Of a stretch of DNA of 64,000 nucleotides, positions 1,673 to 61,863 are shown piece after piece (positions within the stretch are counted from its first letter, which is position 1; each line of letters opens with the position of its first letter). A program made the translations under genes and the position numbers. The notes beneath the pieces are model-generated. The model made no database searches. It had not been told where the DNA came from and saw only the letters and a program-made list of their open reading frames with translations. The DNA comes from Sphingomonas sp. (GTDB lineage Bacteria > Pseudomonadota > Alphaproteobacteria > Sphingomonadales > Sphingomonadaceae): positions 1 to 64,000 of the forward strand of contig JANXUU010000111.1 in the NCBI GenBank assembly GCA_025356055.1, given 5' to 3'.

Positions 1673-2659
1673 ATGGCCCGCGCCTGGCACCTGATGAGCC
1701 GACCAAACGGCATGCCGACCATGAACAATTTTGCGTTGAAGGAGCTGGCTCAGCCGACCCTCGGCGAGGGCATGGTACGGGTAAAGAATAGTTTTCTTTC
1801 GGTCGACCCTTACATGCGCGGGCGGATGAACGACGTGAAATCCTATGTCCCGCCGTTCCAGATCGACGCTCCGATGGAGGGCGGCGCGGTCGGCGAAGTC
1901 GTCGAATCGCACGACCTTGGCTTCGCGATCGGCGACAAGGTCGTCCACATGCTCGGCTGGCGCGATGAGTCGGTCGTACCGGCAGCTGCGCTCAACAAGC
2001 TCCCCGAGCTTGGCGTTCCGCCGCAGGATTTCCTCGGCAACCTCGGGCTGACCGGCGGTACGGCCTATTTCGGGCTGTTCGACGCCGCTCAGGCGAAGGA
2101 AGGCGACACCCTGTTCGTATCGGCGGCCGCGGGCGCGGTCGGGTCGGCGGTGGTGCAGATCGCCAAGGCGCGCGGCATGACTGTGATCGGCTCGGCCGGC
2201 GGCGCGGAAAAGTGCGCATTCGTCAAGTCATTGGGTGCCGATGCGGTGATCGACTACAAGTCGGGCAATCTTGTCAAGCAACTCGGCGAAGCGGCGCCGA
2301 AAGGCATCGATGTCTATTTCGACAATGTCGGCGGCGAGCATCTCGACGCCGCCTTTGCCCACGCCCGCAAGGACGCGCGCTTCGCCATCTGCGGGATGAT
2401 CGACAGCTATAACGGGGGCGAGCCCGCGCAATTCCGCTTCATCATGCGCGTCATCGGAATGCGCATCCGCGTGCAGGGCTTTATCTTCACCGATTACCTG
2501 GCGCAGATGGCCGACTTCTACCGCGACATGGGCGGCTGGATCGCGAGCGGCCAGGTCAAGAGCCGCGACACGATCGTCGAGGGTCTCGAGAAGACGCCGG
2601 AAGCGTTCCTCGGCCTGTTCACCGGGGCTAACACAGGGAAGATGTTGGTCAGGCTGTAA
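1673..2659 (+). CDS. NADP-dependent oxidoreductase, medium-chain reductase family (CurA/YncB-like)
   Basis: A 328-residue soluble enzyme of the zinc-independent leukotriene B4 12-hydroxydehydrogenase/prostaglandin reductase branch, which reduces the C=C bond of enals and enones with NADPH. Typical features are the N-terminal VDPYMRGRM motif, the nucleotide-binding loop AAAGAVGSAVVQIAK near residue 150, and FDNVGG after it. The length matches the family. GGAGA sits 5 bases before the ATG. It is preceded by the terminator of the upstream gene and runs towards the broken metallopeptidase gene, so it is probably transcribed alone. The true substrate cannot be read from the sequence; detoxification of reactive aldehydes is the usual suggestion. 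Confidence 0.92.
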   Translation: MARAWHLMSRPNGMPTMNNFALKELAQPTLGEGMVRVKNSFLSVDPYMRGRMNDVKSYVPPFQIDAPMEGGAVGEVVESHDLGFAIGDKVVHMLGWRDESVVPAAALNKLPELGVPPQDFLGNLGLTGGTAYFGLFDAAQAKEGDTLFVSAAAGAVGSAVVQIAKARGMTVIGSAGGAEKCAFVKSLGADAVIDYKSGNLVKQLGEAAPKGIDVYFDNVGGEHLDAAFAHARKDARFAICGMIDSYNGGEPAQFRFIMRVIGMRIRVQGFIFTDYLAQMADFYRDMGGWIASGQVKSRDTIVEGLEKTPEAFLGLFTGANTGKMLVRL

Positions 2660-2660
2660 A

Positions 2661-3548
2661 TTAACCGACCGTCTGACACTGCGCAGGGTCGCCGGTGGTG
2701 AATCCCTTGCGTAGCGCCGCGACGCGCTGCGCCGAGCTGCCATGCGTGAACTTGTCGGGCATGACGCGCCCCTGCGCTGCGCGTTGGAGCGTGTCGTCGC
2801 CAATCGCGTCGGCCGCCTTGAGCCCTTCCTCGATGTCGCCCGCCTCCATGATCGACTGACCCTTCGCGTCGCGGGCGTCCTTGGCCCACACCCCGGCGTA
2901 ACAATCGGCCTGAAGTTCAATCCCCACCTGAACCGCATTGCCCGCCGTATCGCCCATCCCCGCCTGGGCGTTGTGCGCCTTGTCGAGGGTGCCCTAGAGG
3001 TCCTGGACATGGTGCCCGACCTCGTGCGCGATGACATAGGCCATGGCGAAGTCGCCGGGGGCCTGGAAACGCTGGGACAGTTCCTGGAAAAAGCTGCTGT
3101 CGAGGTAGATCTTCTTGTCGGTCGGGCAATAGAAGGGACCCATCGCCGATTGCGCCGCGCCGCAGCCCGACTGGGTACCGGCGCGATAGTAATGGAGGAC
3201 GGTCGGCTCGTACTGGCTACCCGACGCGGCGAACAGCTTGGTCCAGGTGTCCTCGGTGGAGCCCAGGACCTTGTTGGTGAAGCGCTCGGTCGTCGGGTCG
3301 ATGATGCCGCTCGCGCTCCCGCCGCCGGTCGATTGCGTCGCCGATTGGCCGCCGCCCAGGTCGCCCCCAAAGGACTGCAGCGCGCAGTAACCGAGCGCGA
3401 GGATAATCATCCCGACGATCCCGAAGCGACTGGCAACGAGCGAGAAGATCAGGCCGAGCCCGCCACCGCCGAAACCGCCCATTCCGCCACCTCCGCGACC
3501 CGAATCGATTTCGAAATTGCTGCTTTCGCGCTGGTCGTCGAGCCGTAT
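2661..3548 (-). pseudogene. Neutral zinc metallopeptidase (YpfJ family), disabled by a lost start codon and an amber stop
   Basis: The reading frame encodes a membrane-anchored zinc metallopeptidase: N-terminal RLDDQRES motif, Gly-rich stretch, one membrane segment (IVGMIILALGYCAL), catalytic HEVGHH, then a C-terminal half with ELQADCYAGVWA. Counted as one unit it is 296 codons, close to the roughly 290 of the E. coli relative. Two lesions are seen. The expected ATG is ATA (3546-3548), although a good AGGAGA site (3556-3561) stands 7 bases away. A TAG codon (2994-2996) interrupts the frame just after HHVQDL, where a single base change from CAG or TTG would explain it. Alternative starts further upstream lack a ribosome site. 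A sequencing error would have to occur twice. Confidence 0.8.
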
Positions 3549-15104: not shown

Positions 15105-15770
15105 ATGCGCGTGCTGATCGTCGAGGACGAACCTAATCTGGGGCGCCAGCTCCGCTCCACGCTCGAAGGGGCGGGCTATGCCATCGATCTCGCGACCGAT
15201 GGCGAGGATGGCCATTATCTTGGGAGCACCGAGAATTACGACGCGGTGGTGCTCGATCTAGGGCTGCCCGAAGTCGACGGGCTGACGGTGCTCGACCGCT
15301 GGCGCAAAGAGGGCAAAAGGATGCCGGTGCTGGTGCTGACCGCGCGTGATTCATGGTCGGACAAGGTCGCCGGGCTCGATGCCGGGGCGGACGATTATCT
15401 GGCGAAACCGTTCCAGACCGAAGAGCTGATTGCCCGGCTGCGCGCGCTGATCCGCCGCGCATCTGGTAATGCCTCGAGCGAGCTGATTTCGGGCGACATC
15501 CGGCTCGACACGCGATCGGGCAAGGTCACCAAGGCGGGCGAGCCGGTCAAGATGACCGCGCAGGAGTATAAATTGCTCAGCTACCTCATGCACCACAAGG
15601 GCAAGGTGGTCAGCCGTACCGAGCTGATCGAGCATATTTATGACCAGGATTTCGATCGTGATTCCAACACCATCGAAGTGTTCGTGACTCGCATCCGCAA
15701 GAAGCTTGGTGCCGAGGTCATCACTACCATTCGCGGGCTCGGCTATAGTCTCGAGGACGTTCCGGCTTGA
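15105..15770 (+). CDS. OmpR/PhoP-family response regulator
   Basis: A 221-residue DNA-binding response regulator. The receiver domain (1-120) has the acidic pair in VEDEPN, phospho-acceptor Asp51, Thr in LTARD and Lys in AKPFQ. The C-terminal winged helix (about 125-220) shows VKMTAQEYKLLSYLM and VFVTRIRKKLG with the GYSLE end. The start at 15105 is chosen because MRVLIVEDE is the canonical N-terminus and AGGATG is close; the frame is open upstream to 15006. The stop overlaps the TTG start of the sensor kinase by four bases, so the two are translationally coupled. The stimulus is not known; PhoP-like is by similarity only. Confidence 0.94.
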   Translation: MRVLIVEDEPNLGRQLRSTLEGAGYAIDLATDGEDGHYLGSTENYDAVVLDLGLPEVDGLTVLDRWRKEGKRMPVLVLTARDSWSDKVAGLDAGADDYLAKPFQTEELIARLRALIRRASGNASSELISGDIRLDTRSGKVTKAGEPVKMTAQEYKLLSYLMHHKGKVVSRTELIEHIYDQDFDRDSNTIEVFVTRIRKKLGAEVITTIRGLGYSLEDVPA

Positions 15771-17149
15771 CCGGGGAGGCCGCCGAGCCACCGGCGGCAA
15801 ACGGGGGGAAATTGCCACGCGGCACCGGATCGCTGACCCGGCGGATGATCGGGGTCGCAGCGCTGTGGATCGGGTTGCTGTTGCTGATCGGCGGGTTCGC
15901 GCTCGATCGGGTGCTGTCGCGCTCGATCGTCGATAATTTCGATTCCCAGCTGACCTATGTGCTCAACGCGATGCTCGCGTCGTCGGAGATCGGTCCCGAC
16001 GGCGAGGTGCGGTTCAACCGCCCCCCTGCCGATCAGCGCTTCCTTGAACCCTATTCGGGGCTGTATTTCCAGGTCAGCGGCAAGGGGGTAGAGACGTTTC
16101 CGTCGCGCTCGCTGTGGGACCGGCGGCTACATGCGGCGCAGCACAACGACGTCAAGCTGCACGAATATGACAGCAAGGAATTCGCCGACGAGCCGCTGCG
16201 CATCGCCGAGCGCGACGTGCAGCTGCCCGGATCGACGGTGCGCTGGCGGTTCCAGGTCGCCCAGTCGCGCGACGGGATCGACGATCAGGTCAGCGCGCTT
16301 CGCCGGACCCTGCTGTGGAGCTTTGTCGCGCTCGGGGCGGGGCTGCTGGTGTCGGCGGCGCTGCAGGCGTTTTACGGATTGTGGCCGCTAAGACGAGTGC
16401 GGCGCGAGCTGTTCGCGGTGCGATCGGGGCGGCAGGAGCGGATCGGCGAGGATTTCCCGACCGAGATCCATCCGCTGGTGCATGAACTAAACCTGCTGCT
16501 GGCGCATAGCGAGGAGCAGGCCGAGGAAGCGCGGCGTCATGCCGGCAATCTGGCGCATGCGCTCAAGACCCCGCTGACGGTCGTGACCAACGCCGCGACG
16601 GCGCGCGCGCCCGACCTTGCCGATACGGTGGTGCGCGAGGCATCGGTGATGCGGCGGCAGGTCGATCATCACCTCGCCCGCGCCCGCGCCATCGGCCGGC
16701 GCGCCTCGGCCCAGGCGCGCGCGCGGGTGTGGGAAAGCGTCGAGGCGGTCGAGCGCGCGGTCAGCCGGCTTTATCCCGAAGTGACCGTCGACATTGCTGG
16801 GGATCGGACCGCGATGGTCAGGGTCGAGCGCCAGGACCTCGACGAAATGCTCGGCAATCTGGTTGAGAATGGCGCCAAATATGGCGGCGGGCGGGTATTC
16901 GTGACGGTCGAGAAACCAGTCGATGGCAAGGTCGCGATCCTGATCGAGGACGATGGCGCGGGGATCGCCGAGGCCGAGCGCGGCGCGCTGTTCGTCCGCG
17001 GCGCGCGACTCGATACCGACAAGCCGGGCACGGGGCTCGGCCTCGCGATCGTCCGCGATGTCGCCGAAATCTATGGCGGCGCGGTCACGCTGGAGGAGAG
17101 CGAGGACCTTGGCGGGCTGCTCGCGCGGCTGACGCTGCCCGTGGCCTGA
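15767..17149 (+). CDS. Sensor histidine kinase (PhoQ-like)
   Basis: A 460-residue sensor kinase with two membrane segments (about 27-48 and 183-205) enclosing a periplasmic domain of about 130 residues, a short HAMP-like linker, a dimerisation domain with phospho-acceptor His264 in NLAHALKTPL, and a catalytic domain with N box (LVENGAKYGG), DDGAGIAE and GTGLGLAIVRD. It starts with TTG at 15767 inside the last codon and stop of the regulator gene (TTGA overlap). The HALKTPL form of the H box is the PhoQ-like type. With the PepSY gene upstream it suggests an envelope-sensing unit. Confidence 0.92.
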   Translation: MTGEAAEPPAANGGKLPRGTGSLTRRMIGVAALWIGLLLLIGGFALDRVLSRSIVDNFDSQLTYVLNAMLASSEIGPDGEVRFNRPPADQRFLEPYSGLYFQVSGKGVETFPSRSLWDRRLHAAQHNDVKLHEYDSKEFADEPLRIAERDVQLPGSTVRWRFQVAQSRDGIDDQVSALRRTLLWSFVALGAGLLVSAALQAFYGLWPLRRVRRELFAVRSGRQERIGEDFPTEIHPLVHELNLLLAHSEEQAEEARRHAGNLAHALKTPLTVVTNAATARAPDLADTVVREASVMRRQVDHHLARARAIGRRASAQARARVWESVEAVERAVSRLYPEVTVDIAGDRTAMVRVERQDLDEMLGNLVENGAKYGGGRVFVTVEKPVDGKVAILIEDDGAGIAEAERGALFVRGARLDTDKPGTGLGLAIVRDVAEIYGGAVTLEESEDLGGLLARLTLPVA

Positions 17150-32331: not shown

Positions 32332-34035
32332 CTAGTCGATCTTCGGCAGGGTCTCGAACTGGTGGTACGGCGGGGGGCTGGGGAGGGTCCACTCGAGAGT
32401 AGTGGCGCCTTCGCCCCAGGGGTTGTCGGGGGCTTTCTTGCCCGCCGCCAATGACCAGAACAGGTTGACGAAGAATACCGCCATACCCGCGACCGTGACC
32501 ATGTAGCCGTAGGTCGATACGACGTTCCACTTCTCGAACGCCGGCGTGTAGTCGGGGATGCGCCGCGGCATGCCGTCGAGGCCGAGGAAATGCTGCGGGA
32601 AGAAGATGATGTTCACGCCGATGAACATCAGGAAGAAGTGCAGCTTGCCGAGCGGCTCGTTGAGCATTTTGCCGCTCATCTTGGGGAACCAGTAATAAAA
32701 GCCGCAGAACAGAGTGAACACCGCGCCGAGGCTGAGCACATAGTGGAAGTGCGCGACGACGTAATAGGTATCCTGCATGTAGGTGTCGACGCCGCCGTTT
32801 GCCAGCACGACCCCGGTGACCCCGCCAACGGTGAACAGGAAGATGAAGCCGATCGCAAACAGCATCGGCGTCTCGAAACTGATCGAGCCGCCCCACATCG
32901 TCGCGATCCAGCTGAAGATCTTCACGCCGGTCGGCACCGCGATGATCATCGTCGCGGCGGTGAAGTACATCTTGGTGTTCACGTCCAGCCCGGTGGTGAA
33001 CATGTGGTGCGCCCAAACGACGAACCCGACGACTCCAATCGCGACCATGGCGTAGGCCATGCCGAGATAGCCGAACACTGGCTTGCGGCTGAAGGTGGCG
33101 ATCACCTGGCTCACCATGCCGAAGCCCGGTAGAATCATGATGTAGACTTCGGGGTGGCCGAAGAACCAGAACAGATGTTCGAACAGGATCGGGTTACCAC
33201 CCGCGCTGGCGTCGAAGAAGGCGGTGCCGAAGTTGCGGTCGGTTAGCAGCATGGTAATCGCGCCCGCGAGTACCGGCAGCGCAAGCAGCAGGAGGAAGGC
33301 GGTTACCAGGATCGACCATACGAACAGCGGCATTTTGTGCAGGGTCATCCCCGGAGCGCGCATGTTGAAGATGGTAGTGATGAAGTTGATCGCGCCGAGG
33401 ATCGAGCTAGCGCCCGCGAGGTGGAGCGCGAAGATCGCCATGTCGACCGACGGCCCGACCGAGCCCGAGGTGCTCAGCGGGGCATAGATCGTCCAGCCGG
33501 TGCCCGCGCCGAGGCCCGTTCCGCCCGAGACGAAGCTCGATCCCAGCAGCAGGATGAACGCCGGGACGAGCAGCCAGAACGAGATGTTGTTCATCCGCGG
33601 AAAGGCCATGTCCGGCGCACCGATCATCAGCGGCACGAACCAGTTGCCGAATCCGCCGATCATTGCCGGCATGACCATGAAGAACACCATGATCAGGCCG
33701 TGGGCGGTGATCAGCACGTTCCAGTGATGGAGCGCCTCGTCGAAGTTGGTTGTGCCCGAACCGAGCGGCCATGCCTGGTTGAGGATTTGAATGCCGGGAT
33801 GCATTAGTTCCGCGCGCATGATGCCCGAGATCGCACCGCCGATGACCCCCGCGGTGATCGCGAAGATCAGGTAAAGTGTGCCGATGTCCTTGTGATTGGT
33901 CGACATGAACCAGCGCGCAAAGAAGGCCGGCTTGTGGTCGGCGTCATGATCCGCGTCGTGCGCGTTATGGTCGTGCGCCGTCAGCGCGCTTCCGTTAAGC
34001 GTGGGGTCGTCGACGGTCGGGGCGGTGGTGCTCAT
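32332..34035 (-). CDS. ctaD: Cytochrome c oxidase subunit I (aa3 type)
   Basis: A 567-residue subunit with twelve membrane segments carrying heme a and the heme a3-CuB centre. Clear marks are [11 protein letters not shown] at the start of helix [21 protein letters not shown] (D channel), [18 protein letters not shown] with the crosslinked His-Tyr, [10 protein letters not shown], and TGVKIFSW in the K-channel region, all of the A1 type. The N-terminus has a His/Asp-rich extension ([14 protein letters not shown]). It lies 14 bases behind subunit II in one operon. The genes usually following it in alphaproteobacteria (heme O synthase ctaB, ctaG, subunit III) are not here. Confidence 0.97.
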
Positions 34036-58561: not shown

Positions 58562-58647
58562 GCCCAGGTGGCGGAATGGTAGACGCACCAGCTTCAGGTG
58601 CTGGCGATCGCAAGGTCGTGGAGGTTCGAGTCCTCTCCTGGGCACCA
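58562..58647 (+). tRNA. tRNA-Leu (anticodon CAG)
   Basis: A class II tRNA: acceptor stem GCCCAGG/CCTGGGC, anticodon stem CCAGC/GCTGG around TTCAGGT (anticodon CAG, codon CUG), a long variable arm as in leucine tRNAs, T arm with GGTTCGAGTCC, discriminator A at 58644 and encoded CCA at 58645-58647. Its 3' end is the attachment site of the integrase element that follows. Confidence 0.97.
58629..58647 (+). repeat. attL-like core in the tRNA-Leu 3' end
   Basis: AGTCCTCTCCTGGGCACCA, including the encoded CCA. It matches 61264-61282 at 18 of 19 bases. Confidence 0.65.
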
Positions 58648-58757
58648 GCGCTCCGCCAGGCGCTTGCAATCGCTGAAAAATGGCAGAATATGGACCACTC
58701 TTACAGCTCCGACGCTACAAAGAGGCGCTACAAAAGCGCCAAGCTGGAGCCTTGGTT

Positions 58758-60455
58758 ATGGGTGTCGCTGTGGAATACGTTCGCCGCTTGAAGTCTGGCC
58801 GTCTTGAATATCGCAGGGCCTTCCCCGCGCCACTCCGTCCCTTCGTGGGCTCCCGTGAGTGGGTACGGTCCCTCGGCGCAAGGAGCGTGACGGAGCCGGG
58901 CGCGTTGGTTCGCTACGAAGCCGCCAATGCCGAATACGAGCGCACCGCGACGTTGGCGCGGAAGTCCCTGGCCGGGGCCTACGATGATCTTGACGCCCCT
59001 CGGATTGCCTGGCTCGCTCAAGAGTTCGAAACGGACTTCCTAGCTCAGGACGAGGCACGGCGCGTCATGGGGACCGCGGACCCTGAGATGCATGAAGCCG
59101 CCGACGATGGCCTGCGTGACACCCTCGCGGAGCGCAGCCCTGCCTTCATACGCGGTATGTTCCATCTGGACGCTGAAAGCCTTGCGGCCAAACACGGCTT
59201 GCGGCTGGACAAAGAGAGTGTGTCCTTCCTCGCCCTTTGCCGGGAACTTCTCAAGGCCATGATACGAGGAAACGAAATCCGTATGGCACGGGACAAGGGG
59301 GCGCTGGTGCCTACCCCCTCATCCCAAGAGGCCCCTCAGGCACTCGCAGCCGCGGCCAGCCGGAAAGCGCAAGCTCAACCGAGATTTGTCGTCTTGGCTC
59401 TCACGGAATTAGAGCGCCCAACCGGCGTAGGGGCCTCTACGAAGCAAGCCAGCCAAACGGCCCTAAGTCTCTTTAGGAGCGCCATGGGAGACCTCGCCCC
59501 TCAAGCAATCTCCCGCGCCACAGTCACGGAGTTTGCGGACCTTCTAGCTCGCCTCCCCGCAAACCGATCCGTCCGCGAAAAGCGCCTTCAGGTGCGAGAG
59601 GTCATTAAGTCCTCTGAGGGGCGCGACGTTCCGCGGCTAAGTTGGAAAACCCGTTCGACTCACCTTGGGTCCCTATCGGCCCTCTGGAACAAATTGGTTT
59701 CCTCGGGTGGGATCGATCCGGGACGCCTCAACCCCTTTGCTCGTCACAATATCGGCAAAGCGCCACCCCCGACCGTGAGCGCCGGATTCAACGCCGCGGA
59801 GCTTCACAAGATATTCTCTCTGCCAGTATTCACGGCTGGCGCCCGTCCAAGCGCTTGTCGCGGGGAGGCGGCTTATTGGGTCCCATTGCTCCTCCTGACA
59901 ACGGGAGCCCGCCCTGAGGAAATCGCTCAGCTAATGGTCGCGGACGTTCAAAATGATGGGGAGGGTTGGGGCTGGACACTCACCATAACGGACACCGGGA
60001 CCCATCCTCGCAAAGGCAAGCAACGTCTCAAAACGCCGGGCGCGGGTCGCACCTTTCCCGTACCCCCGTCGCTCATTGACCTTGGGTTCCTCAGGTACGT
60101 CGCCTGGCTCAAGGCCAGCAAGGAAACGGCTCTATTCCCGACACTGCGCACTAAGGGCGCCCGTAACCTCTTGTTCCCCAGTTTCGGCGAATGGTGGGGG
60201 AAGTACCTTCGCGCCAATGACGCTTGGCGGAAAGGGTGCAGAGGGGCGCGGGACTTTCGCCACACATGGCCCACCGCTGCCCGTGAGTGCGGGGTGTCGC
60301 GCGAAGCCCAAGAGTACATAATGGGTCATTATATGGGCGGAGGGACTAGCAACGCGACCTATGGGGACCGGCGCTCGCTAGGTCGCGAACTGCGCAAGGT
60401 GAGCTTCAAAGGTTTTGAAACCGCTAGGATCGCTCCTTGGCGGCCCCTCGATTAA
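58758..60455 (+). CDS. Tyrosine-type site-specific integrase
   Basis: A 565-residue recombinase. The N-terminal part (about 1-200) is a DUF6538-like DNA-binding region (YVRRLKSGRLEYRRAFP); the middle is a core-binding SAM-like domain (about 230-340); the catalytic domain has the first Arg in TTGARPEEIAQL, a Lys in RLKTPGAGRTFPVP, DFRHTW with the second Arg, GHYMGG with His, and the nucleophile Tyr in SNATYGD. The usual His of the HxxR motif is replaced by Arg (ARDFR). The ATG at 58758 is preferred; an upstream ATG at 58680 would start almost inside the tRNA. It belongs to the element in tRNA-Leu. Confidence 0.9.
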   Translation: MGVAVEYVRRLKSGRLEYRRAFPAPLRPFVGSREWVRSLGARSVTEPGALVRYEAANAEYERTATLARKSLAGAYDDLDAPRIAWLAQEFETDFLAQDEARRVMGTADPEMHEAADDGLRDTLAERSPAFIRGMFHLDAESLAAKHGLRLDKESVSFLALCRELLKAMIRGNEIRMARDKGALVPTPSSQEAPQALAAAASRKAQAQPRFVVLALTELERPTGVGASTKQASQTALSLFRSAMGDLAPQAISRATVTEFADLLARLPANRSVREKRLQVREVIKSSEGRDVPRLSWKTRSTHLGSLSALWNKLVSSGGIDPGRLNPFARHNIGKAPPPTVSAGFNAAELHKIFSLPVFTAGARPSACRGEAAYWVPLLLLTTGARPEEIAQLMVADVQNDGEGWGWTLTITDTGTHPRKGKQRLKTPGAGRTFPVPPSLIDLGFLRYVAWLKASKETALFPTLRTKGARNLLFPSFGEWWGKYLRANDAWRKGCRGARDFRHTWPTAARECGVSREAQEYIMGHYMGGGTSNATYGDRRSLGRELRKVSFKGFETARIAPWRPLD

Positions 60456-60576
60456 AGAGACTAGATCACTGACCGGGCACACACCGCGCGAGATTTGATC
60501 AGTAAAAGGATGATTTTACAGTGGCTCAAGGGTAAAATGACTAACGAGTAAAGCCACATTTTATCGCATACCCCGC

Positions 60577-60885
60577 ATGTACAAATTGCACAGAGACGTA
60601 GAGGAGGAAGTTATACTCGAGGACCCGATCAGCGCCCTTACGTGGCGTACTCGCCAGATGAATCCTGCTATTATCACCCGTGAGCCTTACCGAGACTGCA
60701 CCGGCCTCGTGATCCACCTGAACCCACCAATGTTCAGCTTCCAACCTGCGTTCCGCACGGCACACATGAGGGAAGCAACTGAACCGGCTGCGACGGCCTT
60801 CAGAGAAGTCTGGCTCGTGCGAGACCAAGGCGTGCTCCTTTGGAAGGACGGTTCCTTCATCGACCAGATACACGACGACTTCTGA
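60577..60885 (+). CDS. Unknown small protein of the integrative element
   Basis: A 102-residue protein beginning MYKLHRDVEEEVILEDP, with a natural composition and no membrane segment or signal. The middle holds ITREPYRDCTGLVIHLNPP and the end EVWLVRDQGVLLWKDGSFID, suggesting strands of a compact domain. No family recognised. The ribosome site is poor. A frame of 135 codons on the opposite strand (60541-60948) is an alternative but has a less natural composition. Confidence 0.5.
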   Translation: MYKLHRDVEEEVILEDPISALTWRTRQMNPAIITREPYRDCTGLVIHLNPPMFSFQPAFRTAHMREATEPAATAFREVWLVRDQGVLLWKDGSFIDQIHDDF

Positions 60886-60966
60886 TACGGCGCGCGTCCA
60901 TGAAGACTCTTCCCAGACCGCCTGAGAGCCTCCAGAATCGTCGTCCACGCATCATCGGAGGAATGA

Positions 60967-61296
60967 ATGGTCGAGCGTCCCGACGATCCCCACGAGGCTC
61001 CTGACGGCCTTGACGACGATCATCCCGAAGACCTTCCACCACGAGCCTTCAACGAGGCTCTGCACTACGGTCTAGCCGACGATGATCGGCTCGTCAGTGA
61101 CATCTCACATCGATATCCCGAGCCGTCACCGGACGATGTTCCGGACGATAAGCCGCATCGTCGGGATGGTGTGAGTCCTCTCCTGACACTCGAACCGACG
61201 ACCATTGAAAACACCGGACAAAACTTCGCACCCGACGAGGACTCGAACCAGCCAACCCCTCGCAGTCCTCTTCTGGGCACCATTTGGCGAAGATGA
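60967..61296 (+). CDS. Acidic, proline-rich protein at the end of the element
   Basis: A 109-residue, strongly acidic protein of low complexity (PDDPHEAPDGLDDDHPEDLP, EPSPDDVPDDKPH) without signal or membrane segment. GGAGGA lies 5 bases before the ATG, a strong ribosome site. The reading frame continues through the attR-like sequence (61264-61282, encoding SPLLGT) and stops 14 bases beyond it, so the last residues are host-encoded. Acidic small proteins on mobile elements can be DNA mimics, but nothing here proves it. Confidence 0.5.
   Translation: MVERPDDPHEAPDGLDDDHPEDLPPRAFNEALHYGLADDDRLVSDISHRYPEPSPDDVPDDKPHRRDGVSPLLTLEPTTIENTGQNFAPDEDSNQPTPRSPLLGTIWRR
61173..61185 (+). repeat. Partial tRNA-Leu end inside the element
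   Basis: GAGTCCTCTCCTG is identical to 58628-58640 of the tRNA. It lies 90 bases before the attR-like copy. Confidence 0.5.
61264..61282 (+). repeat. attR-like core
   Basis: AGTCCTCTTCTGGGCACCA matches the tRNA-Leu 3' end at 18 of 19 bases and marks the right border of the element. Confidence 0.6.
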
Positions 61297-61376
61297 GGCG
61301 AAAGGCCGTGCCCCCAATGTCACTCACGGGTTCAGAAATTCGCGCACTTCGGCTTGGCACCAGCTGGTTCGCCTGA

Positions 61377-61769
61377 TCAGGCGAGGAGCCGCCACAGCAG
61401 CGCGACGATCCCGGCAAAGCTCACCGTGAACACCAGCGTTCGGACGACGGGCACGCCTGCGGCATAGAGCGGGAGGTAGAGCGCGCGGGCTCCGAGCCAC
61501 AGCATCGCCGCTAGCGCCGTCAGATTATTATTGAGGTGCGCGACCTCGATGGCGAGGATGGCGGCGATCACGACCGGGAAGGTCTCGAAGAAATTAGCTT
61601 GCGCGCGTTCGAGCCGGCCGACGAGCGGACTTGGCGGGGGCATTTGCTCATCGCGCGCGCTCACGTTCCACTTGGTGCCGTATTGGCGCGTACGCACCTG
61701 CGCCGCAGCGAAGATGTGGACGAGGGCAAGGACGCAGCCCCAGGCGAGAATTTTCAATTCGATGCTCAT
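61377..61769 (-). CDS. MAPEG family membrane protein
   Basis: A 130-residue protein with four membrane segments. The loop after the first helix (RTRQYGTKWNVSARDEQMP) and RLERAQANFFETFPVVIAAILA are the MAPEG signature, shared with microsomal glutathione transferases. Bacterial members are poorly known; glutathione conjugation of lipophilic compounds is the usual proposal. AAGGGG lies upstream of the ATG at 61769. It is the first host gene to the right of the integrative element. Confidence 0.9.
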   Translation of the reverse strand: MSIELKILAWGCVLALVHIFAAAQVRTRQYGTKWNVSARDEQMPPPSPLVGRLERAQANFFETFPVVIAAILAIEVAHLNNNLTALAAMLWLGARALYLPLYAAGVPVVRTLVFTVSFAGIVALLWRLLA

Positions 61770-61863
61770 GTGCTTGTCCCCTTTGCGCAAGCGATGGGCG
61801 ACGAGTGGCCGCCTGTCAAAGCGCGCGCTGGATCAGACGCGCGAGCGGGGCTAGGCTTGGGCC

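What the first reader, a model, noticed from the sequence alone, without database searches (positions are those of the whole stretch)
58629..61282. Minimal 2.6-kb integrative element in tRNA-Leu(CAG) with nested attachment-site copies
A 19-bp repeat of the tRNA end (18/19) bounds an integrase and only two small unknown genes. Inside the right end lie a second exact 13-bp copy of the tRNA end (61173) and a 13-bp inverted copy of the T arm (61237). This suggests a stripped-down element or layered integrations. The cargo proteins have no recognised family and are candidates for new small effectors.
Basis: partly seen in the sequence, partly recalled or inferred. Interest (0 to 1): 0.6.

Follow-up and report, generated by a model that had tools for sequence, protein, structure and literature searches.

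The report
Hybrid remnant of two integrated elements
What looked like a tiny mobile element beside a transfer-RNA gene is most likely the left end of one mobile element fused to the right end of another, and following it up led to a little-known class of elements whose integrase gene sits between two identical, oppositely oriented attachment sites.

Summary
The repeats are real. The 2.6-kb stretch is probably not a minimal element but a hybrid remnant. Left half: an intact tyrosine integrase with paired GCTACAAA arm sites (type A). Four relatives' A elements (6.7-9.2 kb) carry such motifs near both ends; the window's right end has none. Right half: the only relative found for the 102-aa ORF is the last 67 residues of a 264-aa gene beside the att site of a different (type B) element. 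The nested copies at 61173 and 61237 belong to a conserved DNA module, with exactly 90 bp between two core copies in nine modules from eight genomes. It sits in the internal att site of all five tRNA-Leu B elements seen, but also alone, or behind a third element type.

B elements are the larger finding: the integrase lies between 137-190-bp inverted repeats, 98-100% identical, each starting at an att core, at several tRNAs (13 of 18 places; the other five are cut off or fragments). In six of nine genomes a second inverted pair flanks the cargo. The inferred circle has two inverted attP sites, like the yeast 2-micron plasmid. Literature listings showed no precedent. Amplification or switching is conjecture.

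The parts
58562..58647 (+). tRNA-Leu(CAG), the integration target
   Evidence: ARAGORN
58629..58647 (+). attL core (tRNA 3' end, AGTCCTCTCCTGGGCACCA)
   Evidence: right-hand copies in A elements of four relatives
58712..58734 (+). type-A left arm sites, ACGCTACAAA and GCGCTACAAA
   Evidence: the same pair at the left end of four relatives, and one or two exact motifs near the right end of their elements
58680..60455 (+). tyrosine integrase A (591 aa from the ORF start; likely start 58758)
   Evidence: phrog_1 integrase E 8.5e-20; DUF6538 below cut-off; relatives at 43-76% in five of 60 other genus genomes; dN/dS about 0.17 against G045
60456..60681 (.). probable fusion zone between the A remnant and the B remnant
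   Evidence: inference: homology to the G105 gene begins at about 60682; 60456-60681 matched no fetched locus other than the window's own at E 1e-3
60577..60885 (+). 102-aa ORF; residues 36-102 match the C-terminus of a 264-aa gene beside the att site of a B element in G105
60967..61296 (+). 109-aa ORF; its first 65 residues matched nothing fetched, its tail is the att module
61173..61196 (+). module block 1: second copy of the core with an inverted T-arm half, GAGTCCTCTCCTGacACTCGAACC
61237..61249 (-). module block 2: inverted T-arm copy GAGGACTCGAACC
61264..61282 (+). right core (AGTCCTCTTCTGGGCACCA), end of the module

Best explanation
The stretch is a hybrid remnant at an integration hotspot. 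An A-type element (integrase A, GCTACAAA arm sites) and a B-type element had both inserted at this tRNA-Leu end; a deletion removed the A element's cargo and right end together with the B element's left part, leaving the A integrase joined to the B element's terminal DNA: the last 67 codons of a cargo gene, then the 90-bp nested-site module with the right core. The nested copies are a recombination-site module: block 1 is a second, more symmetric core 90 bp inside the terminal core, and in other genomes element junctions are found at either copy. Whether the module here came as part of the B end (as in G457) or was already at the tRNA as a solo module (as in G459 and, by its arm sites, G288) is open. 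Shown: the two ends' different affinities, the missing A right arm, the partial gene homology, the module's conservation, junctions at both core copies. Inferred: the order of insertions, the deletion, and that the remnant can no longer excise normally.
For: A elements with identified right cores (G045 6.7 kb, G038 9.2, G023 6.7, G055 6.8) carry GCTACAA motifs near both ends, the window only at the left. ORF 60577-60885: one relative in 397 family genomes besides itself, inside a B element about 200 bp from its internal att core and pointing at it; the window ORF likewise points at its core. Module: nine Leu-type copies in eight genomes with exactly 90 bp between core copies (eight, G443); it lies in the internal att site of all five Leu-type B elements seen (G006, G149, G079, G457, G458). 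Junctions at block 1: attR of G006, G355, G079; a solo 102-bp module fused to a tRNA-Leu end in G459. Layering at this site elsewhere: by eye, another integrase start follows the right core in G288, and the A element of G046 lies behind an integrase-like fragment with no tRNA on its contig.
Against: No genome was found with intact A and B elements in tandem here. The B assignment of the right half rests mainly on one partial homologue in one genome (G105, a tRNA-Gly element). The module is not exclusive to B elements: in G288 it lies behind the right arm sites of a third integrase type (GTACACA pairs, the only four copies in 20 kb), and it stands alone in G459; two B elements (G358, G105) lack it. 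The window's ORF upstream of the module does not match the small gene found there in G149, G079 and G074. The integrase shows purifying selection, though that measure may mostly reflect time before the fusion. The fusion point is known only to about 225 bp. The window's own genome holds no other module and no close B integrase. The 13-bp copies alone are only moderately improbable (2 and 5 of 2000 shuffles).
Confidence: 0.72

Rival explanations
1. A functional minimal element: integrase A now uses this right end and moves the 2.6-kb unit.
For: Intact integrase under purifying selection; cores 18/19 identical.
Against: No A arm motif on the right; the 102-aa ORF looks like a gene fragment; no other genome with this integrase and this right end: close integrase relatives in 5 of 60 other genus genomes have other right ends or none in view, and the module ORF occurs only in the window and G006 among 71 genus genomes.
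Confidence: 0.12
2. An A element lost its right end by deletion next to a solo module already at the tRNA, without any B element; the 102-aa ORF came from elsewhere.
For: A solo module exists at the tRNA in G459, and in G288 the module lies behind the right arms of a third element type. The window's block 1 (GACACTC) is one change from the G459/G288 form (GGCACTC) and two from the B form (GGGACTC) (read by eye).
Against: The window also carries a gene end whose only found relative lies next to a B att site in the same orientation.
Confidence: 0.13
3. The nested copies are chance similarities in a coding gene.
For: The reading frame stays open across the module in five of five aligned sequences; in G149 and G079 a conserved small ORF (44% identity, E 4.5e-12) runs into it.
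Against: In G288 and G443 the open frame is only 48 and 41 codons stop to stop, third codon positions are about as invariant (16 of 37) as first ones (17 of 37), and spacing is exactly 90 bp.
Confidence: 0.01

Closest known systems
tRNA-targeting tyrosine-integrase genomic islands / integrative elements (recalled)
   Same: Integrase next to the tRNA, tRNA 3' end duplicated at the far end, hotspot with variable cargo.
   Different: The window copy has mismatched ends and a gene fragment; B elements carry a second, inverted, complete att site inside.
Yeast 2-micron plasmid (Flp/FRT), recalled from general knowledge
   Same: Inferred B circle: two unique regions separated by inverted repeats, each holding a site for the recombinase encoded in one unique region.
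   Different: B elements sit integrated at tRNAs; autonomous replication, inversion and amplification are untested.
Tandem or accreted islands sharing one tRNA (recalled)
   Same: Layered att copies at one tRNA explain the hybrid.
   Different: Here two layers appear fused by deletion, and the block 1 to core spacing is a conserved feature, not random accretion.

Membership tests
Type-A tRNA-Leu integrative element (defined here) | Integrase A adjacent to the tRNA end | tested here: met
Type-A tRNA-Leu integrative element (defined here) | GCTACAA-type arm motifs near both ends | tested here: not met
   left only
Type-B (inverted-att) element (defined here) | Module plus core at an att site | tested here: met
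   not decisive: some B elements lack the module (G358, G105) and it occurs outside B elements (G288, G459)
Type-B (inverted-att) element (defined here) | B integrase (DUF6538) between inverted att repeats | tested here: not met
   no B integrase in the window's genome at E 1e-60; only one module in it
Functional integrative element | Two compatible att sites with arm sites and an intact integrase | tested here: inconclusive
   integrase intact, right arm sites missing; excision not testable here
ICE/IME | Conjugation or mobilisation genes | tested here: not met
   the three main ORFs between the cores match no such family in Pfam, PHROGs or NCBIfam
2-micron-like amplifying circle (for B elements) | Inverted repeats with recombination sites splitting the circle in two | tested here: inconclusive
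   integrated forms of six genomes imply it; the circle itself was not seen
2-micron-like amplifying circle (for B elements) | Recombinase-driven inversion and copy-number amplification | not testable with these tools
   indirect sign against free inversion: in 12 of 12 places with a tRNA next to the integrase start, the integrase reads away from it

The most novel reading that the evidence does not exclude
The window's right end is a fossil of an unrecognised class of integrative elements whose circular form carries two identical, inverted attP sites that split it into an integrase half and a cargo half; the repeats are kept identical within each genome, and recombination between the inverted sites serves the element, for example as a 2-micron-like amplification device or a switch of integrase orientation. 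The 90-bp module with two core copies would be a removable part of that site.
Probability: 0.25. Interest if true: 0.85.

Novelty: new variant of a known kind. Interest (0 to 1): 0.6.

Why it matters
It corrects a 'minimal element' reading that would mislead effector searches, shows how composite remnants can form at a tRNA hotspot, and explains nested tRNA-end copies as a conserved module whose two cores both appear as junctions. It also points to a recurring architecture (integrase between near-perfect inverted att repeats, at Leu, Phe, Lys, Arg and Gly tRNAs in one bacterial family) that simple attL/attR finders would probably mis-delimit, and whose purpose can be tested directly.

Tried and rejected
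Protein-family searches of both small ORFs (Pfam, PHROGs, NCBIfam) gave nothing; tblastn of the 102-aa ORF against plasmids and phages gave nothing. The exact pattern scan found nothing; the relaxed scan gave 17 stretches, of which 7 have an exact core 90 or 102 bp downstream and 10 do not (taken as chance); the viral scan gave 2, neither with a core. B integrase against plasmids: 4 distant records (34% or less), none covering 80% of it; against phages: none, so no extrachromosomal circle was seen. I first called a conserved A-element gene 'ParB-like' by eye; Pfam gives no match for the G045 copy, so I drop that name. A free integrase switch was considered: the fixed orientation in 12 of 12 places speaks against frequent inversion in the chromosome. 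Protein-coding conservation as the whole cause of the module was rejected, although a conserved small ORF does run into it in G149 and G079. A possible third core near 61345-61364 is within chance (14/20 matches occur 5 times forward and 4 reverse in the window). Papers: searches; only listings and abstract openings were seen, no paper was opened; two of these searches returned nothing; in the listings I saw none that describes this layout. The library lacks most subscription journals. The 2-micron comparison is recalled.

Full report
Check of the observation. ARAGORN places tRNA-Leu(CAG) at 58562-58647. Its last 19 bases recur at 61264-61282 with one mismatch, a 13-bp exact copy lies at 61173-61185 and a 13-bp exact inverted T-arm copy at 61237-61249. 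In 2000 dinucleotide shuffles of 60456-61300 an 18/19 core arose in 0, a direct match of 13 or more in 2, an inverted one in 5. The integrase ORF 58680-60455 is open, matches PHROG 1 integrase and weakly DUF6538.

The integrase and its family (A). In a sample of 60 other genomes of the genus, close relatives of the integrase occur in five (G045 76%, G038, G023, G046, G055 at 43-46%). Four sit directly behind the same tRNA; in G046 no tRNA is found on the 9-kb contig. Of 40 fetched loci 38 carry the tRNA (37 relatives plus the window's own); scanning these for a tRNA-end copy with at most 4 of 20 mismatches found direct copies in G038, G023, G055 and the window, and two inverted ones in G006; G045 has a copy one base short, found by looking. 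These A elements are 6.7-9.2 kb and carry GCTACAA motifs near both ends: two exact hits at each end in G045 and G038, two left and one right in G023 and G055. G046 has no exact hit. The window has the pair on the left only; no other match to GCGCTACAAA with at most one mismatch lies between the cores. The window integrase looks maintained: dN 0.17, dS 1.02 against G045 over 590 codons.

The right-end module. The ORF tail at 61173-61282 first matched a reverse-oriented stretch in G006. A pattern search with at most 2 mismatches found it in 4 of 397 family genomes, the window's included (G006 was not in that sample). A relaxed scan of the public genome collection found 17 stretches, 7 with an exact core 90 or 102 bp downstream: Parerythrobacter lacustris (G458), Alteripontixanthobacter muriae (= G149), Croceicoccus bisphenolivorans (G460 = G443), Croceicoccus ponticola (= G288), Sphingomonas phyllosphaerae (two copies, G457) and Sphingomonas sp. 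R-74633 (G459) (the equations marked = rest on matching contig lengths). Spacing is exactly 90 bp in the window, G006, G149, G079, G457 (twice), G458, G288 and G443; 102 in G459; 89 in G355, which uses a different target end. In five aligned modules 16, 17 and 21 of 37 codon positions 3, 1 and 2 are invariant, and in G288 and G443 the frame is open for only 48 and 41 codons, so DNA is conserved, not just protein. In G149, G079 and G074 a small ORF before the att core is related between genomes (44-55% identity, E about 1e-11), and in G149 and G079 it runs into the module; the window's ORF does not match it.

Use of both core copies. In G006, G355 and G079 the far junction lies at block 1, whereas in G457 and the window it lies at the terminal core. 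In G459 a tRNA-Leu end runs straight into block 1, followed after 102 bp by a tRNA-end copy, with no A or B integrase match in the 8 kb seen; a second tRNA-Leu(CAG) exists in that genome. In G288 a third integrase type (26-28% to A and B) has GTACACA pairs 12-13 bp apart behind its left core and 71-84 bp before block 1, the only four copies in 20 kb; so its right end is probably block 1, and module and terminal core lie behind it. The simplest reading is that either core copy can recombine with the tRNA end and that the module can stand alone; this is inferred from junctions, not shown by experiment.

The small ORFs. The 102-aa ORF has one relative among 397 family genomes besides itself: the last 67 residues (69% identity) of a 264-aa gene in G105, about 200 bp from the internal att core of a B element and pointing at it. 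Residues 1-35 and DNA 60456-60681 matched nothing among fetched loci apart from the window's own, nor did the first 65 residues of the 109-aa ORF. The simplest reading is that the window keeps only the terminal 0.6 kb of a B element, fused within 60456-60681 to an A remnant. This rests on one partial homologue; the module alone would not prove it, because of G288 and G459.

The B class. G006 and G149 showed the B integrase between perfect inverted repeats (168 and 165 bp) that begin at the core. I then searched 397 family genomes with the G149 integrase: 17 genomes, 18 places at E 1e-60 or better. Inverted repeats around the integrase were found in 12 of 18 with 1.5-kb flanks (one of them a 39-nt piece at a contig end) and in a 13th (G173) with a longer stretch. 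The other five are integrase fragments or stop at a contig end. The targets include Leu(CAG), Phe, Lys, Arg and Gly tRNAs. In 13 aligned arm pairs (12 genomes, since G173 and G458 appear to be one) the two arms are 97.6-100% identical, while arms of different Leu-type genomes, that pair excluded, are 45-70% identical. A second inverted pair around the cargo (207-2,420 bp, 93-100%) is present in six of nine genomes with a long downstream stretch: G457, G006, G079, G358, G355, G105; not seen in G149, G381 and G458, the last on a stretch of about 11 kb. The internal att site holds the module in G006, G149, G079, G457, G458 and a counterpart in G355; in G358 and G105 it is a plain core. The integrated form therefore reads tRNA-core-arm-integrase-arm'-core'-cargo'...cargo-core-host, and the circle would carry two inverted attP sites.

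Mechanism. Shown: sequence architecture, near-identity within pairs, junction variety. Inferred: homogenisation by recombination between copies, and the circle. Conjecture: inversion-driven amplification or switching. Against free inversion, the integrase reads away from the tRNA in all 12 places where a tRNA lies next to its start. No extrachromosomal copy was found among plasmids or phages.

Novelty. Tyrosine-integrase islands in tRNAs are well known (recalled). Searches of an open-access library gave, in the listings I saw, no description of integrases between inverted att repeats; I read listings and abstract openings only, so this is weak evidence of absence. I file the window as a remnant and the B architecture as a new variant of a known kind.

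Noticed in passing
L130 (G288), right core at 16951; L077 1785-1898: Behind the right core lies the start of another integrase-like ORF (MPLTDKGIKALSPRAKPYKR..., read by eye): a further layer at the same tRNA.
   Followed up: partly
L127 (G459:C3:438001-446000), tRNA at 3186-3273 of the reverse strand: A solo 102-bp module between a tRNA-Leu end and a tRNA-end copy: a probable excision scar that alters the tRNA's 3' end; a second tRNA-Leu(CAG) is present in that genome.
   Followed up: partly
L130 (G288) 2544-2562 and 16778-16797: A third element type at the same tRNA-Leu, with GTACACA arm pairs at both ends and its right end apparently at block 1 of the module.
   Followed up: partly
window 61377-61790: A MAPEG-family gene sits right of the element; the nearest relative (80% identical, G045) lies on another contig without the carbonic-anhydrase-like neighbour within 1.5 kb, and it was not found in the 37 relative tRNA loci.
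   Followed up: partly
L055 (G000 contig C130, about 32689-33561): A second, distant (28%) integrase in the window's genome, near a tRNA-Ala in its locus L002.
   Followed up: no
L155 (G105) 2406-3446: An alcohol-dehydrogenase-like ORF (by eye) lies inside the integrase half of a B element, between the integrase and the inverted repeat.
   Followed up: no
L155 (G105) 15639-17126 minus, L110 6468-7946, L096 3560-5071: A conserved gene of about 495 aa (Walker-A-like start, by eye; the L110 copy has no Pfam match) recurs in B elements.
   Followed up: partly
B elements G149, G079, G074, just before the att core: A small acidic ORF related between the three genomes (44-55%) ends at or runs into the att core; a candidate for a directionality factor or other att-linked protein, function unknown.
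   Followed up: partly
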